From NCBI GenBank assembly GCA_030650265.1, contig JAUSEJ010000215.1:1-6753 (forward strand): a stretch of 6,753 bases of DNA. Reading direction: 5' to 3'. Below are positions 1 to 6,753 of the stretch, one piece after another; positions within the stretch are counted from its first letter, which is position 1, and every line of letters begins with the position of its first letter. The notes under the pieces are model-generated. The model saw only the letters and a list, made by a program, of their open reading frames with translations, was not told the origin of the DNA and searched no databases. Both the position numbers and the translations under genes were made by a program. This DNA is from Dehalococcoidia bacterium (GTDB lineage Bacteria > Chloroflexota > Dehalococcoidia > JACPQF01).

Positions 1-738
1 GACGCGACAAGCGGTGTCCTTTTCCAAATGCGCCCAGACGTAGCTGCCCACCCGCCCGGCTACGAGCACTTCGGCGAGCGGGTCGGTGAGATGCAACATA
101 GCGGCCCGCAAGCGGCTGACGTCCAGTGTCAGGGTGCTGAGGAACTCCCGAGTATGGCGGCCGGCTCGCTGGTGAACTTTCAGGACCAGCAGATCGGCAG
201 GAGTGTCCACATCGAATTGCGTGGCGGCGTTCCGTTCTAGCTGCAAGTCCTCCAGTTCCGCCTGTCTTCGCAAGAGCTGTGCGAGGGAATTGTCGATGTC
301 GGGCAGCTCGATGCGGTCGATGGCGCTAGCGGGGGTGAAGGCGACCATGTCGGCGGAGAACAGGTTATTGGTGATAACGGCGTTCTTGGCCGACATCAAC
401 TGACCGGCTATGGCGGCAAGGTCTTCGGCGGTGAACAGGGCGCCCGCCCCACCGCCGATGTAGAAGGGGAGCGTCACATCATAGCCGACGATCAACTCGC
501 GCAGTCGCCTACCGAAGTGAAATGGCCCCGAGTCTAGCTCCACGGTGACCGAGGGGCCGACTCGCCCGGCCAATGCTGTAGAGTCGGTAGCCACGATAAT
601 ACGGTCGAAGGCGCCAGTTGCCTCCGCCCGTTCGATCGTGTCGAGGGTGATGGCATGCTGCGCTCCAGCGACCATCTGCTCGGCCTGACTATCGCCCTGT
701 CCGCCAACAAATATGATGAGGGTAGGGTATGATGACAT
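1..738 (-). CDS. Nucleotidyltransferase-like protein (MobA/CofC-like fold), partial, 3' end beyond the window
   Basis: An uninterrupted frame of 246 codons runs from an ATG at 738 to the window edge, so the C-terminus is missing. The pattern resembles GT-A fold nucleotidyltransferases of the MobA/CofC type: a hydrophobic first strand (PTLIIFVGG, residues 5-13), a helix and strand ending in FDRIIVATDS (44-53), a central LPFYIGGGAGALFTAEDL stretch (about 90-107) in the place where such enzymes have GGD-P-L-T-x-x-D, and FDVDTPADLLVL (about 175-186), very like the DxDTPxDL motif of those families. The usual N-terminal GGxSxRMGxxK nucleotide-binding loop is not present: after GG comes QGDSQAEQM. 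The substrate therefore cannot be assigned and activity may be altered or lost. Residues after about 190 form a further, mostly helical segment I do not recognise. The gene begins 6 nt after the kinase stop codon, so it is almost certainly co-transcribed as the third gene of the hpf operon. The ribosome site is modest (AGGTG, 2 nt before ATG). Confidence 0.75.
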   Translation of the reverse strand, partial: MSSYPTLIIFVGGQGDSQAEQMVAGAQHAITLDTIERAEATGAFDRIIVATDSTALAGRVGPSVTVELDSGPFHFGRRLRELIVGYDVTLPFYIGGGAGALFTAEDLAAIAGQLMSAKNAVITNNLFSADMVAFTPASAIDRIELPDIDNSLAQLLRRQAELEDLQLERNAATQFDVDTPADLLVLKVHQRAGRHTREFLSTLTLDVSRLRAAMLHLTDPLAEVLVAGRVGSYVWAHLEKDTACRV

Positions 739-744
739 GGGCAC

Positions 745-1716
745 CTATCCCAAAGATGCGCCCCTGTGGGAGGCGTAGGTTTCATCTGACAAGGGTATGA
801 TCTGCACCTGGGGGATGAGGCGGTCCACATCCTCCTTCTTGCATAACTGGGTGCCGGGGGCAAGGGCCGTCGCCGCCCCTGCCGCGGTGCCCAGGCGCAG
901 GCCTTCGACGAATGGCTTGCCCCCGGCGAGGCTGAGAACAATCCCGGCCACCAGTGAATCACCGGCGCCAGTGGTGCTGACGACCTTGATCTGAGGCGAA
1001 ATCACCTTCCATTTCCCCTCGTTGCAGATGGCGATGCTGCCTTGCTTGCCCATGGAGACCACTACGTATTCTATTCCCCGCTCATGAAGGTTCATGGCAG
1101 CGGTAAAGACGTCTGCCTCATCTGCTATGAGGCGACCGACCAGGGCTTCCAGCTCACGCCAATTAGGTTTTATCATCGTCGGTCCGGCGGCAACGCCCAA
1201 TACCAGCGGCGTGCCGTCGGCATCGAGGATGGTGTTAGCGCCGAGTTTCTTGGCGAAATCGATGAATCCGGCGTAGACATCCGGCTCGATCCCGGGAGGA
1301 ACGCTGCCGGCGACCACAAGCCAACTGCCAAAGGTCAGATGGGCGTGGAGGCGGGCCCGGAGCGCCTTGACGAACTTTGGATCGGTCGTAGGGCCGGTAT
1401 CGTTTATGTTGGTAGTGACGCCCCGCCCTTGCTCGACTATTTCGATGTTGGTCCGCGTTTGTCCAGGCGTGTGAATGAAGTCGTCGAAGATGCCCCGATC
1501 ATTCAGAGCATGCTCCACGAATCTGCCCACAGATCCGGAGACAAACCCCATGGCCAGGCTTTCCTGCCCCAACTCGCGAATCACTCGCGAGACGTTGATG
1601 CCCTTTCCCCCCGGGTCGATCAGGGACTCTTTGGCCCGGTTAACCTCGCCGACGACCAACCTGTCGAGAAAAACCGTTTTGTCCATGGCCGGATTGAGGG
1701 TTAGGGTGATTATCAC
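745..1716 (-). CDS. fruK: 1-phosphofructokinase-family sugar kinase (PfkB/ribokinase superfamily)
   Basis: A 323-residue protein, close to the usual length for FruK/LacC-type kinases. Visible family signatures are LTLNPAMDK at residues 5-13, the sugar-binding GGKGINVSRV at 36-45, TRTNI at 87-91, GSVPPG at 137-142, KPNWRELE at 183-190, and the ATP-site/catalytic TTGAGDS at 248-254, with Asp253 as the expected catalytic base. These enzymes phosphorylate a phosphosugar such as fructose 1-phosphate, tagatose 6-phosphate or fructose 6-phosphate in the cytoplasm. No PTS component or FruR-like regulator is in the window, so the substrate is not settled; the symbol reflects family resemblance only. 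The start is GTG, preceded by GGAG about 10 nt upstream. It lies 25 nt after hpf and 6 nt before the nucleotidyltransferase-like gene, implying one operon. No frameshift or missing key residue is seen. Confidence 0.9.
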   Translation of the reverse strand: MIITLTLNPAMDKTVFLDRLVVGEVNRAKESLIDPGGKGINVSRVIRELGQESLAMGFVSGSVGRFVEHALNDRGIFDDFIHTPGQTRTNIEIVEQGRGVTTNINDTGPTTDPKFVKALRARLHAHLTFGSWLVVAGSVPPGIEPDVYAGFIDFAKKLGANTILDADGTPLVLGVAAGPTMIKPNWRELEALVGRLIADEADVFTAAMNLHERGIEYVVVSMGKQGSIAICNEGKWKVISPQIKVVSTTGAGDSLVAGIVLSLAGGKPFVEGLRLGTAAGAATALAPGTQLCKKEDVDRLIPQVQIIPLSDETYASHRGASLG

Positions 1717-1741
1717 GGCGGTCTTGCTCCGACTACGATCG

Positions 1742-2305
1742 CTATGGGCGCTCCGGCTCGATCATGCCGTACTGCCCATCTCCCCGGCGGTAAACGACGC
1801 TGTACCGGTCTGTGGAGGCGTTAAAGAACAGGAAGAAACTGTGTCCTAGCAACTCCATCTGCTCGGTGGCCTCTTCCGGATACATCGGCTTGATGGGGAA
1901 GCGCTTGACCCTCATAAGTATGCCGGCCTCGGTTTCGTCTTGATCTTCGTCTGCTGGATCGGGGGTATCTTGCTCGATGTCCCTGATCGCGAGCCCGGAT
2001 CTTCCTCTCCGAGAGGACTTTCCCTTGAAACGCTTGATCTGCTGAATTATGGAGTGGGACACGGCGTCCACGGCAGCGCGCATGTCGGCGTCTCTCTCCT
2101 CGGCCCGGAGGATCGTGCCATCGGCGATTGCCGTCACCTGTACAACAAAGCGGTCTCCCTGACTCTTCGTCTTCTCCTCGGCGACCTCAACCTCCGTCTG
2201 GACGAGATGCTCGAGGTAATGATCCAGTTTGCCGATCTTCTTCTCTATATAATCTCGGGCGACATCGGGAATCTCCGTGTTTCTCCCTTTGATTATCAAT
2301 TCCAT
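1742..2305 (-). CDS. hpf: Ribosome hibernation promoting factor, long form (HPF/RaiA family)
   Basis: A 187-residue protein with both domains of long HPF. Residues 1-95 match the N-terminal S30AE domain that binds the 30S decoding region (MELIIKGRNTEI, then EVEVAEEK, the strand FVVQVTAIADG, and the basic helix ending QIKRFKGKSSRRGR). Residues about 100-128 are a charged acidic linker. Residues 129-185 are the C-terminal dimerisation domain, with VKRFPIKPMYPEEATEQMELLGHSFF split over 133-158 and YSVVYRRGDGQYGMIEP at 168-184. Long HPF pairs two 70S ribosomes into inactive 100S dimers in stationary phase or stress. The ATG is preceded by GGAG with a 10-nt spacing. It is the first gene of a minus-strand operon with the sugar kinase and nucleotidyltransferase-like genes, which is unusual company, and has its own recognisable promoter. 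The identification is secure. Confidence 0.96.
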   Translation of the reverse strand: MELIIKGRNTEIPDVARDYIEKKIGKLDHYLEHLVQTEVEVAEEKTKSQGDRFVVQVTAIADGTILRAEERDADMRAAVDAVSHSIIQQIKRFKGKSSRRGRSGLAIRDIEQDTPDPADEDQDETEAGILMRVKRFPIKPMYPEEATEQMELLGHSFFLFFNASTDRYSVVYRRGDGQYGMIEPERP

Positions 2306-2370
2306 AAGTCTATATCTCCAATCCTACGTTGCTGCGATGCGATCTAAACAGCCAAGGCTGATAGACTTAT
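2304..2370. repeat. Perfect 10-bp inverted repeat spanning the hpf leader
   Basis: ATAAGTCTAT at 2304-2313 and its exact reverse complement ATAGACTTAT at 2361-2370 are separated by 47 nt. One arm overlaps the last bases of the predicted hpf -10 box and the start site; the other overlaps the first bases of the hpf start codon. A second dyad, CAGCC-AA-GGCTG at 2349-2360, directly abuts the upstream arm. The arms could be paired operator sites. They could also fold the leader RNA over the start codon if transcription begins upstream of 2370, which the predicted promoter does not support. Arms this AT-rich may also arise by chance. Confidence 0.5.
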
Positions 2371-2397
2371 TCTAGTCGAAATCAGCCCTTATTACAA
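2369..2397 (-). promoter_or_regulatory. Predicted sigma70-type promoter of the hpf operon
   Basis: Read on the minus strand, TTGTAA (2397-2392) and TAGAAT (2374-2369) are separated by 17 nt, with four and five of six matches to the -35 and -10 consensus. The start of transcription would fall near 2362, giving an hpf leader of about 57 nt. It lies back to back with the promoter of the divergent DUF362 gene, about 20 nt between the two -35 boxes. This is a pattern match only. Confidence 0.55.
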
Positions 2398-2417
2398 ATC
2401 GAAGGAAAAAGGACGAT

Positions 2418-2446
2418 TTGACGTCTCTAGCCGCTTTCGGTATGAT
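2418..2446 (+). promoter_or_regulatory. Predicted strong sigma70-type promoter of the DUF362 gene
   Basis: TTGACG (2418-2423) and TATGAT (2441-2446) are each five of six matches to consensus and have the optimal 17-nt spacing. Transcription would start near 2453. That is only about 12 nt before the ATG at 2465 and within the GGGAGG ribosome site, so the leader would be extremely short. Confidence 0.65.
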
Positions 2447-2451
2447 TAAGT

Positions 2452-2457
2452 GGGAGG
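2452..2457 (+). promoter_or_regulatory. Ribosome binding site that sets the DUF362 start
   Basis: GGGAGG lies 7 nt before the ATG at 2465, ideal spacing. It argues against the in-frame GTG at 2450, which would overlap the ribosome site itself and lie upstream of the predicted transcript start. Confidence 0.8.
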
Positions 2458-2464
2458 ACTTTCG

Positions 2465-3577
2465 ATGGCAACAAAAGCAACTGTGGCAATACTTCGCACC
2501 CGCCCTGAGACAGTTTTGGCCGACTACGAGCGATTACTCGATCTGGCAAACGTCGGGAAGGCTCTCGATCCGTCGGCGACGACTATACTCAAGGATAACA
2601 TTTCCTGGCATTATCCTTTTCCAGGGGCCAATACGACGCCATGGCAAATGGAAGGAACGATCGTGGCGCTGCGAAAAGCAGGCTACAAGGATCTGACCTG
2701 TGTGCAAAACAGGACCGTTGTAACTAACGCTTTCAAGGGCACGGATCTCAACGGCTACTGGCCGATATGCCGGACGTACGACATTCCGGTACTGTTCAAC
2801 TTCCGCCCGGGCGATATGAACTGGATCGAGTACAAGCCAAAGGCAAAGATGCTGGTCCTCGATCGAATCTTCAATGATAACATCAAGATTCCGGATTATT
2901 TCTTCGGCAAGAATGTCGTTCATCTTCCCACCGTCAAGTGCCATATCTACACGACAACAACCGGCGCCATGAAGAACGCGTTCGGCGGACTACTCAGCGA
3001 AAAGCGACATTACACTCACTCGTGGATTCACGAGACCCTCGTCGACCTGCTGGCGATTCAGAAGGAGATTCATCCTGGTATCTTCGCCATCATGGATGGC
3101 ACGACTGCTGGCAATGGGGCAGGCCCCCGCATTATGAAGCCGGAAACGAAGGATGTGATCCTCGCTAGCGCCGATCAGGTGGCCATCGACGCGGTTGCGG
3201 CCAAACTCATGGGGTTCGATCCTCTCTCTATTCCCTACATCCGGCTGGCGCATGAGGCTGGCCTGGGTGTGGGAGACCCGCGTGAGATCGAGGTGCTCGG
3301 CGATACCGAAGTGGCGAAAGAAAGCTGGGGCTTCAAAGTTGGCCAGACCTTTCTGAAGAGACTTGGCTGGCTTGCCTGGTATGGCCCGACTAAAGTGTTT
3401 CAGAACCTCGTCCTGCACACCCCTATCGCCCATGGCGCCTTCCTCACCTCCGAGATCTACCACGACTACTACCGCTGGAAGTTCATCGAGAAGAAGGTTT
3501 ACGAAGACTGGCGAAAGACGTCGCATTGGGGCGAGATGTTCATCCAGTATGAAAAGTCCGGTGTTATGGCCAAGTAG
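2465..3577 (+). CDS. DUF362 domain-containing protein
   Basis: A 370-residue protein from the ATG at 2465 that resembles the DUF362 family (PF04015). The family's typical core is visible: VVHLPTVKCHIYTTTTGAMKN at about 151-171 (written here across the segments VVHLPTVKCH and IYTTTTGAMKN), followed by AFGGLL (172-177), then AIMDGTTAGNGAGPR at 208-222 and ASADQVAIDAVAAKLMGFDP at 234-253. Some DUF362 proteins carry a ferredoxin-like CxxCxxC cluster domain; none is seen here, and only three cysteines occur. No signal peptide or membrane segment is evident, so a cytoplasmic location is inferred. The biochemical role of the family is not established, so no function is given. The C-terminal 80 residues are rich in aromatic residues (repeated W, Y and F). 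The gene is a single plus-strand unit with its own strong promoter, divergent from hpf and convergent with the MerT/HMA gene. Confidence 0.88.
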   Translation: MATKATVAILRTRPETVLADYERLLDLANVGKALDPSATTILKDNISWHYPFPGANTTPWQMEGTIVALRKAGYKDLTCVQNRTVVTNAFKGTDLNGYWPICRTYDIPVLFNFRPGDMNWIEYKPKAKMLVLDRIFNDNIKIPDYFFGKNVVHLPTVKCHIYTTTTGAMKNAFGGLLSEKRHYTHSWIHETLVDLLAIQKEIHPGIFAIMDGTTAGNGAGPRIMKPETKDVILASADQVAIDAVAAKLMGFDPLSIPYIRLAHEAGLGVGDPREIEVLGDTEVAKESWGFKVGQTFLKRLGWLAWYGPTKVFQNLVLHTPIAHGAFLTSEIYHDYYRWKFIEKKVYEDWRKTSHWGEMFIQYEKSGVMAK

Positions 3578-3626
3578 GGGACTTCCGAGGAATTATTTGG
3601 CAACTTCGTAAGAAGCCCGGCCATTG

Positions 3627-3754: not shown

Positions 3755-4420
3755 TCAGGGCATGGGCCGATCCGAGACTATGGCGGTTTTGTACTTTGTC
3801 TTCTCGTTGATAATCTTCACCACGGCTTCGGCCGAGGTCTTGTTGCTATCATAGACTAGGACGCCGGTGCCCTCGGGAAAATGGGCCTCGATGAGCGTGA
3901 CTCCGGGCTGTGACACGACAGCCCCTTCGACCGAAGTCGCTCAGCCAGCTCAGGTCATGCCCGAGATCGAGAGATCGGCCCGGCGCACGCCGAACATTCT
4001 CGGCTGTGCAGGAGAAGCCTGGCCGGATGCGGCGGCTGATCTGCCTGCTGCTGCCGCTACGCTGGCGATGTGTTGGCCGGCCACTGGCGCTAGAATGGGC
4101 GAGACCACCTGAGTGAGCAGGATGTACAGGGCGCCGGCCGTCCCCGACAAAACGAGAGGAAACAGCCATTTGTTGCGCTTTGTTTCCTCGACAGAGCAGA
4201 CGGTGGCCTGTCGGCGGCGGGCGTATAGAAGCCCCCCCACCAACAACAGCCCGCCCAACACATAGAATAGTGGGCTGTATGAGGTGGCGGCAACGAGGAA
4301 CGAGGCACTCGAAAGGCCGAGAAGGATGGCCAGGGGCGGTCCTACACAGCAGATGCTGGCGATTAATCCGCCGCCCAGGCCCCAGTGGACGACGCGCATC
4401 TTCCAAAGGCGATGTAGCAT
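3755..4420 (-). CDS. MerT-type mercury transporter fused to an HMA domain, predicted double-selenocysteine (UxxU) protein
   Basis: The frame is 221 codons long if two in-frame TGA codons (3950-3952 and 3941-3943) are decoded. Residues 1-110 resemble MerT: a first membrane segment with the vicinal pair SICCVGPP (Cys24-Cys25), a second at about 50-66, a cytoplasmic loop with Cys75 (ATVCSVEE), and a third at about 84-108. An Ala/Ser/Gly-rich linker (115-145) leads to DLSISGMT (149-156). The next four codons are TGA-Ala-Gly-TGA (157-160). The frame continues ATSVEGAVVSQPGV, HFPEGTGVLVYD and SAEAVVKIINEK, then KYKTAIV, matching MerP/HMA domains through the last strand. Both Cys of the metal-binding GMTCxxC are therefore TGA, and all other Cys are TGC or TGT. 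A SECIS-like hairpin follows. The likely role is Hg(II) capture and uptake across the inner membrane. The ATG at 4420 is chosen for its AGGAGGT site; in-frame ATGs at 4423, 4444 and 4459 are alternatives. The final stop is TGA at 3755-3757. No merR or merA is in the window. A double-nonsense pseudogene is the main alternative. Confidence 0.82.
3905..3924 (-). promoter_or_regulatory. Predicted bacterial SECIS hairpin
   Basis: On the mRNA, GGGCUGU (3924-3918) pairs perfectly with ACAGCCC (3911-3905) around the loop CGUGUC. The 7-bp GC-rich stem has a G in the second loop position. The loop begins 23 nt after the second UGA and 32 nt after the first, both inside the roughly 16-37 nt window I recall for bacterial SECIS elements. 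One hairpin could thus serve both codons. Immediately upstream, CUUC-GGUC-GAAG (3936-3925) is a smaller stem with GG opening its loop, 17 nt after the first UGA; it may be a second, weaker element or an extension. SelB binding is inferred. Confidence 0.7.
3941..3952 (-). other. Two in-frame TGA codons replacing both cysteines of the HMA CxxC
   Basis: The minus-strand codons are TGA-GCT-GGC-TGA, directly after GGC-ATG-ACC (Gly-Met-Thr). In HMA domains GMT is followed by Cys-x-x-Cys, so both TGA codons fall exactly on the two metal ligands. Each is one substitution away from TGC or TGT. This is the classical signature of selenocysteine replacing cysteine. Confidence 0.85.
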
Positions 4421-4446: not shown

Positions 4447-5502
4447 TCAATGGGCCCATGAGGGAAACTCGCCAATGGCCAGGATCAGCGGAATGCCGGA
4501 TCCGTCGACTGTCACTCTTATAAGCACTGGTTCGTCTCCACGCTGTTGTTCTGCCGACACCATCGTCTTGGCGCTATCCGCAGACCAGACGGGCGTCGTG
4601 AGATTGTAGGCTAGAAGCAGATCTCTTGGCCTCCCTCCCGCAAGCGGGGGAAGGATAGCCAGGGTTTTCTGCTCGCCATCCTTTAGCACAAGAGCAATCA
4701 TCTTGCCATCAGGCGACCAAGAGGGTGACCAACTGCCACTGGCCACGCCGACGGCAAGCCTCACCGCCTTGCCGCTCCTAACCTCGACTAGGAGCAATTC
4801 CTCATCGCTATCTTTGGGCATTGAGCGGACAGCAAGCTGATCCGAGCGCGGTGACCATGTCAGTTCGCCGAACCTACCCTCAATCAGCAGTCGGGGGTTT
4901 GCGCCGTCAGCTTGGACGAGGAAGACGCCGCCGGTGGTGGGTGTCTTGTTGAAGCTGAAAGCGATTGTAGCGCCATCCGGTGACCATGCAGGCGTGTTGA
5001 TATTACCTTCGTAGATGCGTTGGAGTTCGCTCCCATCTACGTTCACCGTGTAGAGTCCCTGCCGATCCTTCGAGGAATCGCGAAAGGCGAGACGTTTTCC
5101 GTCGGGCGACCAGGTTGGTCTGCTGTAGAGGCCGGTGGCAGGGGCGACCTTATGCTCGCCTGTTCCGTCCGCTCTAGCCACAAAGACGCCTACCCGGTCC
5201 GGCGCATTCAGGGCGATGAAGGCGATGTTAGCGCCGTCGGGCGACCATACCGGCGTGGTATCGATGGGTCCTTGGGTGATGAAGGTGGGTGCGCCGCCGT
5301 TGCCAGTTGCCTTGGCAATTTTCCCTCCCTGGGAGAACACTATGTGGCCTTCGACCTTAGCGGATGATTCAGCGCTGCCAGACGACGCCTGCGGGTAAGC
5401 CGAGACAAAGGACATGAGGTCGCGCCCGATGAAGATAGCGGCTACTACCGTGAAAAGCACGAGGATTGCAACAATCAAGGCGTTGAACAGGCGAAGAATC
5501 AT
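4447..5502 (-). CDS. Membrane-anchored PD40 (TolB-like) beta-propeller protein
   Basis: A 351-residue protein. Residues 5-25 form one strong hydrophobic segment after a short N-terminus with a single Arg, consistent with a signal anchor, followed by a Ser/Ala-rich spacer (about 38-49). The rest is a run of PD40/WD40-like blades, each with the W-S-P-D-G core: PVWSPDGANIAF (84-95), PTWSPDGKRLAF (129-140), PAWSPDGATIAF (171-182), LTWSPRSDQLAV (214-225), PSWSPDGKMIAL (260-271) and the degenerate PVWSADSAKTMV (304-315), ending FPSWAH. Six blades are therefore visible, as in TolB, though it lacks the TolB N-terminal domain. It probably lies outside the membrane as a protein-binding scaffold; the partner is unknown. 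A ribosome site AAGGA lies 8 nt before the ATG. The gene stops with TGA, 26 nt before the MerT/HMA start, so the two are likely co-transcribed. That TGA is followed in frame by another TGA and a TAA within nine codons, so it acts as a normal stop. Confidence 0.85.
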   Translation of the reverse strand: MILRLFNALIVAILVLFTVVAAIFIGRDLMSFVSAYPQASSGSAESSAKVEGHIVFSQGGKIAKATGNGGAPTFITQGPIDTTPVWSPDGANIAFIALNAPDRVGVFVARADGTGEHKVAPATGLYSRPTWSPDGKRLAFRDSSKDRQGLYTVNVDGSELQRIYEGNINTPAWSPDGATIAFSFNKTPTTGGVFLVQADGANPRLLIEGRFGELTWSPRSDQLAVRSMPKDSDEELLLVEVRSGKAVRLAVGVASGSWSPSWSPDGKMIALVLKDGEQKTLAILPPLAGGRPRDLLLAYNLTTPVWSADSAKTMVSAEQQRGDEPVLIRVTVDGSGIPLILAIGEFPSWAH

Positions 5503-5593: not shown

Positions 5594-6481
5594 CTACTGA
5601 GCGGCGTTCCAGGCCTGGGCTAACTGATCCGAGGTCAACTCGCCCATGGTTGTGTGGCGAAGTACAACAGGCCGATCAAGGTCGATGATGACGGCGAACA
5701 TGACCTTTATGCGTTGACCCGGGTTGACTGAGATTGTGCGGCCCACGCGACAGGCAAAGTTACCGGTTACTTTTGGCGCTTCGTGGATGTGGCCGTGGAG
5801 GGTGAGGAGTGGCTGATGTTTGGTGATGGCCGCTCTGATCGCCTTGCTTCCTACGTCGAGTCCTTCCGCGGTGCGGTCCAAACCCGTGCGGAAGGGAGGC
5901 GAATGCATGATGCAAATGCACTTTTCGGCGTCCGGCGTCCCGATGCCCAGGTTTTCTATCTCCTCTTCGATGCTCGGACGTTGGGAAAGGTAAGTGCCAA
6001 TATCGGCCTGCCTGATTTCACCGGCTTCTGAGTAGAAGACCGGGTTTGGCTCACCGGGGCAAGGTTCAATCGCCAAATCACGCCGGTCAAAGTCCTTCAT
6101 GCCAAACGGTGTGGGTGGTACGAAGGGCATCGTTAGCAAGACGTAGCCCCCGGCAATTCCGATTCTTTCTGGCTTGGCGCTGGCTACTAGTCCCGCCAAA
6201 TCCAGCTTCGCCAGGTCCAGAAACGCATCATGCCAGTCGTTATTGCCTGGCATCAGGTAGATTGGACAACCACCCAAAGCTCTGTGACTCAGCAACAAGG
6301 CCGGGAGAATCTCCCGAGCGAATTGCTTCTGCACACGGAGCATTTCTTCGTAGGGCCTGGCGATGGGGAAGAGATCGCCGCCGACGATGGCCATATCGAC
6401 ACGTTCATTCCTCGTGTGGTCGAGGAACTGGGAGTAGTGTTTTTGGCTTCCGTGGAAATCTGTTGCGAAGGCTAATCGCAC
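5594..6481 (-). CDS. Calcineurin-like metallophosphoesterase
   Basis: A 295-residue protein with all the metal-ligand motifs of the superfamily in order: D-x-H in FATDFHGS (Asp8, His10), GD in IVGGDLF (Asp36), the GN(N)D box in MPGNNDWHD (Asn80), a lone His in CIMHSPPF (His193) and the closing GHxH in LHGHIHEAP (His231, His233). These bind a dinuclear metal centre and hydrolyse phosphoesters; the substrate cannot be read from sequence. No signal peptide is seen, so a cytoplasmic location is likely. The GTG at 6481 is chosen because GGAGGA lies 9 nt upstream and the protein then begins MRLAFATDFHG, placing the first motif near the N-terminus as usual. An ATG at 6523 would overlap queA and add 14 unneeded residues. 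It follows queA by 16 nt and is probably co-transcribed with it. Confidence 0.9.
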   Translation of the reverse strand: MRLAFATDFHGSQKHYSQFLDHTRNERVDMAIVGGDLFPIARPYEEMLRVQKQFAREILPALLLSHRALGGCPIYLMPGNNDWHDAFLDLAKLDLAGLVASAKPERIGIAGGYVLLTMPFVPPTPFGMKDFDRRDLAIEPCPGEPNPVFYSEAGEIRQADIGTYLSQRPSIEEEIENLGIGTPDAEKCICIMHSPPFRTGLDRTAEGLDVGSKAIRAAITKHQPLLTLHGHIHEAPKVTGNFACRVGRTISVNPGQRIKVMFAVIIDLDRPVVLRHTTMGELTSDQLAQAWNAAQ

Positions 6482-6490
6482 TTGTTCTGC

Positions 6491-6496
6491 TCCTCC
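6491..6496 (-). promoter_or_regulatory. Ribosome binding site that sets the metallophosphoesterase GTG start
   Basis: GGAGGA on the minus strand begins just after the queA stop codon and ends 9 nt before GTG at 6481. No comparable site precedes the in-frame ATG at 6523, which lies within queA. Confidence 0.7.
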
Positions 6497-6497
6497 G

Positions 6498-6753
6498 TTA
6501 GAGAATAAGCATCGCGTCGCCAAAACTGTAAAACCGGTACTCCTGACGAATCGCTTCCTCGTAAGCGCCTAATATCTTCTCCCGTCCGGCGAAGGCGCTG
6601 ACGAGCATGAGCAAAGTGGAGCGGGGCAGGTGGAAGTTGGTAATAAGTGCGTCGACTACCTTGAACTCGAAACCAGGAAGCATGAATAGACTGGTCGGAC
6701 CAGAACATGGGTTGAGGGTTGTGGGACGAGGGTTGAGGGCGGAGGGTGGAGGG
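6498..6753 (-). CDS. queA: S-adenosylmethionine:tRNA ribosyltransferase-isomerase, C-terminal part
   Basis: Only the last 84 residues are in the window. They match the QueA C-terminus closely: a segment [20 protein letters not shown] (start through about 6690 to 6650), then [40 protein letters not shown] and the terminal [10 protein letters not shown]. QueA transfers and isomerises the ribosyl moiety of SAM onto 7-aminomethyl-7-deazaguanine in tRNA to form epoxyqueuosine. The stop is TAA. Upstream of PCSG the frame remains open but reads as a Pro-rich stretch ([14 protein letters not shown]) encoded entirely by the heptamer repeat at 6709-6753. This lies where QueA proteins vary in a surface loop, so the repeat seems to be an in-frame insertion. 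I cannot see whether the frame continues correctly beyond the edge. The queA frame leads into the metallophosphoesterase gene after 16 nt. Confidence 0.92.
6709..6753 (+). repeat. Heptanucleotide GGGTTGA tandem repeat, G-quadruplex-capable, inside queA
   Basis: GGG runs occur at 6709, 6716, 6723, 6730, 6737, 6744 and 6751, an exact 7-nt period. Units read GGGTTGA, GGGTTGT, GGGACGA, GGGTTGA, GGGCGGA and GGGTGGA, with a seventh GGG at the window end, so the array may continue. Seven G-triplets with 4-nt loops meet the usual G-quadruplex pattern on the plus strand, the template strand for queA. Degeneracy between units suggests it is not freshly expanded. Confidence 0.85.

What the first reader, a model, noticed from the sequence alone, without database searches (positions are those of the whole stretch)
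3755..4420. A MerT-HMA mercury transporter with a UxxU double-selenocysteine metal site
Seen: the frame is interrupted by exactly two TGA codons that fall on both cysteines of the HMA GMT-CxxC motif, with an intact HMA domain continuing in the same frame to a stop at 3755-3757. Cys24, Cys25 and Cys75 use TGC or TGT. Known: HMA/MerP domains bind Hg(II) or Cu(I) through the CxxC pair, and selenocysteine typically replaces catalytic or metal-binding cysteine. I recall Sec-containing mercury-transport-like proteins in selenoprotein surveys, but cannot confirm it, and paired Sec residues are rare. Inferred: a diselenol site would bind Hg(II) very tightly because of the strong Se-Hg bond, perhaps delivering it to the MerT membrane Cys pair. 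Standard annotation would truncate the protein at residue 156 and lose the metal-binding domain.
Basis: partly seen in the sequence, partly recalled or inferred. Interest (0 to 1): 0.95.

Follow-up and report, generated by a model that had tools for sequence, protein, structure and literature searches.

The report
Double-selenocysteine MerT-HMA mercury transporter
A gene from a likely Chloroflexota bacterium has two in-frame TGA codons exactly where relatives have the two metal-binding cysteines of an attached domain, so it likely makes a membrane mercury-uptake protein that would grip the metal with two selenocysteines instead of two cysteines.

Summary
Confirmed and extended. The minus-strand frame 4420-3755 has 221 sense codons with TGA at codons 157 and 160: both cysteines of an HMA GMT-CxxC site, behind a MerT-like membrane part. 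It is not a decayed gene. Two metagenome proteins (79%, 71% identical) stop at the same residue, and contigs of equal lengths encode the same HMA tail. Two genomes related to a Chloroflexota MAG, about 50% identical here, carry the same TGA pair (MTUAGU); a third has UxxC. The 28 Cys-type relatives aligned have CxxC. A hairpin meeting published bacterial SECIS rules lies 23 and 32 nt after the UGAs, in the same place in both UxxU genomes, though weaker in one. Both genomes have SelA, SelB, SelD and tRNA-Sec; the window's own genome is not held. Mercury handling is inferred from MerT-like cysteines, ArsR/MerA neighbours and MerA in all three Sec-bearing genomes. A Cys-less beta-propeller gene directly upstream accompanies all three UxxU genes. 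Sec-containing MerT proteins and UxxU metal-binding proteins are already named kinds; this is a divergent double-Sec MerT-HMA variant.

The parts
3755..4420 (-). MerT-HMA selenoprotein gene, 221 sense codons plus stop; TGA at codons 157 and 160
3950..3952 (-). first Sec-UGA (U157), first Cys position of GMT-CxxC
3941..3943 (-). second Sec-UGA (U160), second Cys position
3905..3924 (-). SECIS-like hairpin GGGCUGU-CGUGUC-ACAGCCC (7 bp, 6-nt loop, -11.1 kcal/mol); loop starts 23 nt after UGA160 and 32 nt after UGA157
   Evidence: rule from PMC13188914 Fig 2 legend
3928..3939 (-). small hairpin CGAC/GUCG between the UGA pair and the main hairpin; its stem is unchanged in three lineages
3758..3976 (-). 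HMA domain (beta-alpha-beta-beta-alpha-beta, pLDDT about 81-94); nearest solved folds include MerP
4088..4387 (-). MerT-like membrane part with Cys24-Cys25 in TM1 and Cys75 in a basic loop
4426..4430 (-). Shine-Dalgarno-like GGAGG
   Evidence: by eye
4447..5502 (-). TolB-like PD40 beta-propeller gene with an N-terminal hydrophobic stretch (by eye) and no Cys; conserved partner directly upstream; ends in TGA used as a stop

Best explanation
This gene likely encodes a membrane mercury-uptake protein in which two in-frame TGA codons, sitting where relatives have the two cysteines of the HMA metal site, are predicted to be read as selenocysteine (UxxU). Shown: the TGA pair, its conservation in diverged relatives, the Cys columns it replaces, the conserved reading frame after it, a hairpin that fits the bacterial SECIS model for both UGAs, and Sec machinery in the two other genomes that carry the same TGA pair. 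Inferred: one SECIS hairpin serves both UGAs; the HMA domain lies outside the membrane (basic Cys75 loop inside, HMA after the last membrane helix); U157/U160 capture Hg(II) as MerP Cys33/Cys36 do and pass it to Cys24/Cys25 in TM1, then to Cys75 and to MerA. The beta-propeller protein encoded directly upstream is probably an envelope partner of unknown role.
For: TGA pair and intact HMA frame. P0003 and P0004 end at the same SISGMT, and tails P0007/P0008 (79 and 81% identical) come from contigs of the same lengths, 2209 and 1217. G446 and G456 homologs read MTUAGU with exactly two TGAs; G418 reads MTUDGC with one. 28 of 28 Cys-type relatives have Cys at both columns. Window versus L168 after the UGA: dN 0.37, dS 1.26. 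The hairpin is matched by 6 of 2000 synonymous draws (window), 14 of 2000 (L168), 44 of 2000 (L170, UxxC) and 315 of 2000 (L169); two stem pairs changed on both sides. SelB over cut-off in 6 of 6 genomes, SelD 6 of 6, SelA 5 of 6, tRNA-Sec 4 of 6, both UxxU genomes having all four. MerA in 18 of 119 relatives, including 3 of 3 with the Sec gene. In G418 MerA is directly next to the UxxC gene with an ArsR/SmtB gene nearby; in G456 an ArsR/SmtB gene follows the UxxU gene. The relay MerP Cys33/36 to MerT Cys24/25 to Cys76/82 is described in PMC5715351 (passages).
Against: No genome of the window is held and no reads were available, so its own Sec machinery is unseen. The L169 hairpin is weaker (-6.7 kcal/mol, one mismatch, 315 of 2000 draws as good), and the window's 68-nt region as a whole is not unusually stable (z -1.08; 30 of 200 shuffles as good). 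Covariation rests on three sequences (50 of 500 shuffles reach it). tRNA-Sec in G418, the UxxC genome, is below the gathering score (43.1 of 47). The Pfam MerT score is under its cut-off, as are all three NCBIfam models named. The second cytoplasmic Cys of MerT (Cys82) is absent. No mer gene was recognised elsewhere in the window, and in G446/G456 MerA lies on other contigs. DNA of P0003/P0004 could not be read, so their stops are known only by position.
Confidence: 0.8

Rival explanations
1. A real UxxU selenoprotein, but for Cu(I), Ag(I) or another soft metal rather than Hg(II).
For: HMA domains of copper ATPases and chaperones score as well as or better than MerP in sequence and fold searches. 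The linkers of P0009 and P0010 are rich in Met, His and Asp, which suggests Cu(I)/Ag(I) ligands. The two neighbouring ArsR genes hit the general metalloregulator model over cut-off and no Hg-specific model; the Cd/Pb regulator CmtR is hit only below cut-off.
Against: Over its whole length the protein matches MerTP fusions best. Cys24-Cys25 are invariant in 32 of 32 aligned. MerA is present in 3 of 3 Sec-bearing genomes against 18 of 119 overall and sits beside the UxxC member. The window's own linker lacks the Met/His motif.
Confidence: 0.2
2. A decayed or mis-sequenced gene: two chance nonsense changes in an ordinary MerT-HMA gene.
For: Two in-frame stops in a single contig with no reads available.
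Against: Both stops are TGA, fall on the CxxC cysteines, and recur in two genomes about 50% identical with otherwise intact frames; the downstream frame is under purifying selection.
Confidence: 0.02
3. Two separate products: a MerT stopping at residue 156 and a 53-residue HMA tail restarted at the GTG at 3916-3914.
Against: The tail would lack the metal site; of the 13 codons from U157 to the GTG, 10 of 13 are identical in residue to L168 and to L169, and 13 of 13 between L168 and L169, more than in the rest of the protein.
Confidence: 0.03
4. TGA reassigned to an ordinary amino acid in this organism.
For: None beyond the open frame.
Against: The upstream propeller gene uses TGA as its stop, and its product ends at the same place as its orthologs. 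The UxxU relatives carry SelA/SelB/SelD/tRNA-Sec. (Absence of in-frame TGA from the other frames listed is true by the way those frames were called and proves nothing.)
Confidence: 0.01

Closest known systems
NCBIfam NF045683 MerT_CopZ_Se (MerT/CopZ fusion-like heavy metal transport selenoprotein)
   Same: MerT-like membrane part fused to an HMA/CopZ domain; named a selenoprotein
   Different: 42.2 bits against a cut-off of 375, so outside that model. Whether its members are UxxU was not seen; the 2026 review lists the mercuric transport selenoprotein as C/SxxU with one Sec
NCBIfam NF041115 UxxU_metal_bind (metal-binding (seleno)protein)
   Same: HMA-type domain with a UxxU metal site, two Sec
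   Different: 74-position model, too short for a MerT part; 39.4 bits against a cut-off of 95
NF033556 MerTP fusion mercuric transport protein
   Same: MerT plus C-terminal HMA architecture (match 18-212 of the protein to 6-185 of 186); best whole-length model hit (63.6 bits)
   Different: Both HMA cysteines replaced by TGA; under the cut-off of 180
MerP (PDB 1osd, 1afi)
   Same: Fold of the HMA domain (TM-score by target 0.91 and 0.85)
   Different: Separate protein with a Cys pair, not UxxU

Membership tests
Bacterial selenoprotein gene | In-frame TGA aligned to Cys in homologs | tested here: met
   both TGAs; 28 of 28 Cys-type relatives have Cys there
[quoted passage not shown]
   G446 and G456 with UxxU, G418 with UxxC, out of 119 relatives searched
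Bacterial selenoprotein gene | SECIS hairpin: 3-9 nt loop, 4-16 bp stem, G in first two loop positions, 16-37 nt spacing, MFE at or below -7.5 | tested here: met
   window, L168 and, for its single Sec, L170 meet all by the energy of the hairpin alone; L169 misses the energy limit at -6.7 (rule)
Bacterial selenoprotein gene | Sec machinery in the host | tested here: inconclusive
   host genome not held; present in both UxxU relatives and in the neighbour-gene relative G001
Bacterial selenoprotein gene | Se in the full-length protein | not testable with these tools
   needs Se-75 or mass spectrometry
NF045683 MerT_CopZ_Se | Curated score cut-off 375 | tested here: not met
   42.2 bits
NF041115 UxxU_metal_bind | Curated score cut-off 95 | tested here: not met
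   39.4 bits
NF041115 UxxU_metal_bind | UxxU motif | tested here: met
   U157-A-G-U160
NF033556 MerTP fusion | Curated score cut-off 180 | tested here: not met
   63.6 bits
MerT (PF02411) | Pfam gathering score 32.9 | tested here: not met
   17.7 bits
MerT (PF02411) | Cys pair in the first membrane helix | tested here: met
   Cys24-Cys25, invariant in 32 of 32, inside the first hydrophobic segment
MerT (PF02411) | Hg(II) transport | not tested
   inference from cysteine layout and gene company
HMA (PF00403) | Pfam gathering score 24.8 | tested here: met
   39.2 bits

The most novel reading that the evidence does not exclude
A two-gene envelope mercury-capture system: a dedicated Cys-less beta-propeller protein plus a MerT-HMA transporter whose external site is a diselenol (UxxU), with a single SECIS hairpin decoding two UGAs nine nucleotides apart.
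Probability: 0.5. Interest if true: 0.75.

Novelty: new variant of a known kind. Interest (0 to 1): 0.62.

Why it matters
Most predicted prokaryotic selenoproteins are thought to be redox proteins (PMC9312934, abstract). A transporter that replaces both ligands of a metal site by selenocysteine would test whether Sec can be selected for metal affinity rather than catalysis. How a cell releases Hg(II) from a diselenol, expected to be a very tight Hg ligand, is then a direct question. The gene also shows one hairpin placed so that it could serve two closely spaced UGAs, with a naturally occurring UxxC relative whose hairpin sits closer to its single UGA as a built-in comparison. It adds members from relatives of a Chloroflexota MAG that gene callers would cut into pieces.

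Tried and rejected
A search with P0001 in genome contigs found no relative; its patterns fell on peptides that later proved poorly conserved. The neighbour DUF362 protein was used instead to place the window near Chloroflexota. L001, the best match (83%), is syntenic with window 1-3580, but its contig carries other frames where MerT-HMA would lie, and its genome has only one weak match (E 0.013). NF045683 in 400 genomes of the phylum gave no hit over cut-off (166 with weaker matches). Its best row, G210, gives a MerT and a separate MerP-like HMA protein with CxxC in the translation; its TGAs look like ordinary stops. L083 (G271, one TGA) is a MerT without the HMA tail; its TGA looks like its stop. 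Rfam gave only three weak snoRNA-type matches in the window, all under their gathering scores. The protein has no match on the plasmids searched. One search printed no frames because its motif pattern missed them; (output cut in part) and 34 repeated the reading. A tree (31 of 32 proteins; P0039 dropped) puts the three UxxU proteins together (100/99), but the UxxC protein is on a long branch, so one or two origins of Sec cannot be told. Structure models are confident only for the HMA domain (pTM 0.39 both times). A 2007 paper that I recall as describing such selenoproteins is not held.

Full report
WHAT IS THERE. The minus-strand frame 4420-3755 is as described: 221 sense codons with TGA at codons 157 and 160 in GMT-U-AG-U, then an open HMA domain and a TGA stop. 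Cys24, Cys25 and Cys75 are TGC, TGT and TGC. Pfam gives HMA 39.2 bits over its cut-off and MerT 17.7 bits under its cut-off. NCBIfam's best model is MerTP_fusion (63.6 bits, cut-off 180), then MerT_CopZ_Se (42.2, cut-off 375); UxxU_metal_bind scores 39.4 (cut-off 95). The propeller gene directly upstream ends in TGA at the same place as its orthologs, so TGA is also a normal stop here. The other frames hold no in-frame TGA, but that follows from how they were called.

WHERE IT COMES FROM. No genome is held. The DUF362 neighbour is 83% identical to that of the Chloroflexi MAG NC_groundwater_646 (L001); the nine best of the 80 matches kept (of 181) are Chloroflexota-type records, with Bacteroidota, Myxococcota and others further down. 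L001 is syntenic with window 1-3580 but lacks the MerT-HMA gene. The window is therefore likely Chloroflexota; this is an inference from one region.

CONSERVATION OF THE TWO TGAs. A search of 5.8 billion proteins (7996 candidates scored) found four: the window's own, P0003 (79%) and P0004 (71%), both ending at the same SISGMT, and the CxxC protein P0005 (33%). Searching with the tail found the window's own tail and two 53-residue proteins, P0007 and P0008, 79 and 81% identical, on contigs of the same lengths (2209 and 1217) as P0003 and P0004; that they are the same contigs is inferred. In 119 relatives of L001's genome, 17 had a match, and three hold full-length homologs with TGA inside: G446 (51%, two TGAs), G456 (54% and 48% in two pieces, two TGAs) and G418 (38%, one TGA). 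Translated, G446 and G456 read DKMT-U-AG-U-ATAVE and G418 reads GMT-U-DG-C. Among 294 relatives of G446 no further one was found at E 1e-12. In 400 genomes drawn from the phylum, 28 had a match; apart from G063 (full length, CxxC) and MerT-like partial matches (for example G271, G170 and G122), most rows match only the HMA part, many inside frames of about 800 residues or more. A profile search gave 31 proteins: the window's own, P0003, P0004 and 28 Cys-type relatives. In an alignment of 32 full-length proteins (28 Cys-type, 4 Sec-type) both columns are Cys in all 32, U being written C in the Sec-type ones.

SELECTION AFTER THE UGA. Downstream of the UGA, window versus L168 has dN 0.37 and dS 1.26, and window versus L169 dN 0.34 and dS 0.79, similar to the upstream part (0.49/1.40 and 0.43/1.31); the synonymous values are large and so rough. 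The 13 codons from U157 on are 77% identical in residue to each, and identical between L168 and L169. The HMA domain is therefore, by inference, translated in this frame.

SECIS. The 2026 review gives the bacterial model: 3-9 nt loop, 4-16 bp stem, G in the first two loop positions, 16-37 nt from UGA to loop, MFE at most -7.5 kcal/mol (PMC13188914, Fig 2 legend, passage seen). The window's hairpin GGGCUGU-CGUGUC-ACAGCCC (-11.1 for the hairpin alone) meets it for both UGAs, 32 and 23 nt away. By the scan's own, slightly wider rule, 1.2% of 13356 positions and 3.6% of 195 TGAs in the window (these two included) do as well. L168 has the same hairpin (-12.4) with the same loop CGUGUC; L169 has it with one mismatch (-6.7, missing the energy limit), and its best whole fold is another; the UxxC protein has a different hairpin (-8.8) 17 nt after its single UGA; the CxxC gene L171 has none better than -0.5. 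Keeping the protein and drawing codons at random, 6, 14, 315 and 44 of 2000 draws do as well for window, L168, L169 and L170. Two stem pairs changed on both sides, one cell is unpaired, and 50 of 500 shuffles reach the covariation: supportive but thin with three sequences. The 68-nt region as a whole is not unusually stable (z -1.08, 30 of 200 shuffles as good).

SEC MACHINERY IN RELATIVES. Among six genomes, SelB over cut-off in 6, SelD in 6, SelA in 5 (none in G271), tRNA-Sec over cut-off in 4 (G446, G456, G001, G271; not G418 or G063). SelB over cut-off is present in 31 of 60 relatives of G001, so Sec decoding is common around this clade.

MECHANISM. The accepted relay is MerP Cys33/Cys36 to MerT Cys24/Cys25 in TM1 to Cys76/Cys82 at the cytoplasmic face to MerA (PMC5715351, passages seen). 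Here U157/U160 take the place of the MerP pair, Cys24/Cys25 are invariant (32 of 32) and Cys75 is present in 31 of 32; the second cytoplasmic Cys is absent in the window protein. Hydropathy gives membrane segments around 18-36, 43-67 and 85-113 with a basic loop holding Cys75, so by the positive-inside rule (established knowledge) the HMA domain would be outside. AlphaFold folds the HMA domain well (pLDDT about 81-94) and the membrane part poorly; Foldseek matches copper HMA domains and MerP 1osd (TM by target 0.91, third rank). MerA over cut-off is in 18 of 119 relatives and in 3 of 3 with the Sec gene (hypergeometric 0.003, not corrected for kinship). In G418 MerA lies next to the UxxC gene with an ArsR/SmtB gene nearby; in G456 an ArsR/SmtB gene follows the UxxU gene. 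In G446 and G456 MerA is on other contigs.

CONSTANT PARTNER. Directly upstream lies a TolB-like PD40 beta-propeller gene without cysteines. Its ortholog (43-47%) occurs at E 1e-40 in 2 of 119 relatives, exactly G446 and G456, and there too directly upstream of the UxxU gene. The UxxC gene in G418 has MerA there instead. Its role is unknown; an envelope partner is the simplest guess.

AGAINST KNOWN KINDS. Reviews list a Sec-containing mercuric transport protein (PF02411; C/SxxU, one Sec, in the 2026 one) and a UxxU metal-binding protein (NF041115, two Sec) (PMC9312934 and PMC13188914, passages seen); the GOS survey lists Sec-containing MerP and mercuric transport proteins (PMC2398784, passages). 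The listings of searches showed no title or abstract on a MerT-HMA fusion with UxxU, in this open-licence library only. The window protein is therefore a new, divergent variant that combines the two known kinds, not a new category. I could not see whether NF045683 members are UxxU.

Noticed in passing
L168 and L169, proteins P0009 and P0010, linker between TM3 and HMA: The linker is rich in Met, His and Asp (for example MPGMDHGAM), unlike the window's; this could bind Cu(I) or Ag(I).
   Followed up: no
L157 (G446:C142): MerA over cut-off next to a small HMA protein with GMTCEGC: the same genome keeps a Cys-type HMA protein beside MerA and the UxxU protein elsewhere.
   Followed up: partly
L190-L195 (SelD matches in six genomes): Each best SelD match contains one in-frame TGA (6 of 6); possibly SelD is itself a selenoprotein here. 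Position not inspected.
   Followed up: no
L170, 6830-7222 minus: A small DUF2442-like frame (name recalled, not searched) lies downstream of the UxxC gene.
   Followed up: no
window 1-3577 and 5594-6752: The other genes (1-phosphofructokinase, HPF, DUF362, metallophosphoesterase, QueA tail) match ordinary families; 1-744 had no Pfam match. The stretch 1-3580 is syntenic with L001 5485-9131.
   Followed up: partly
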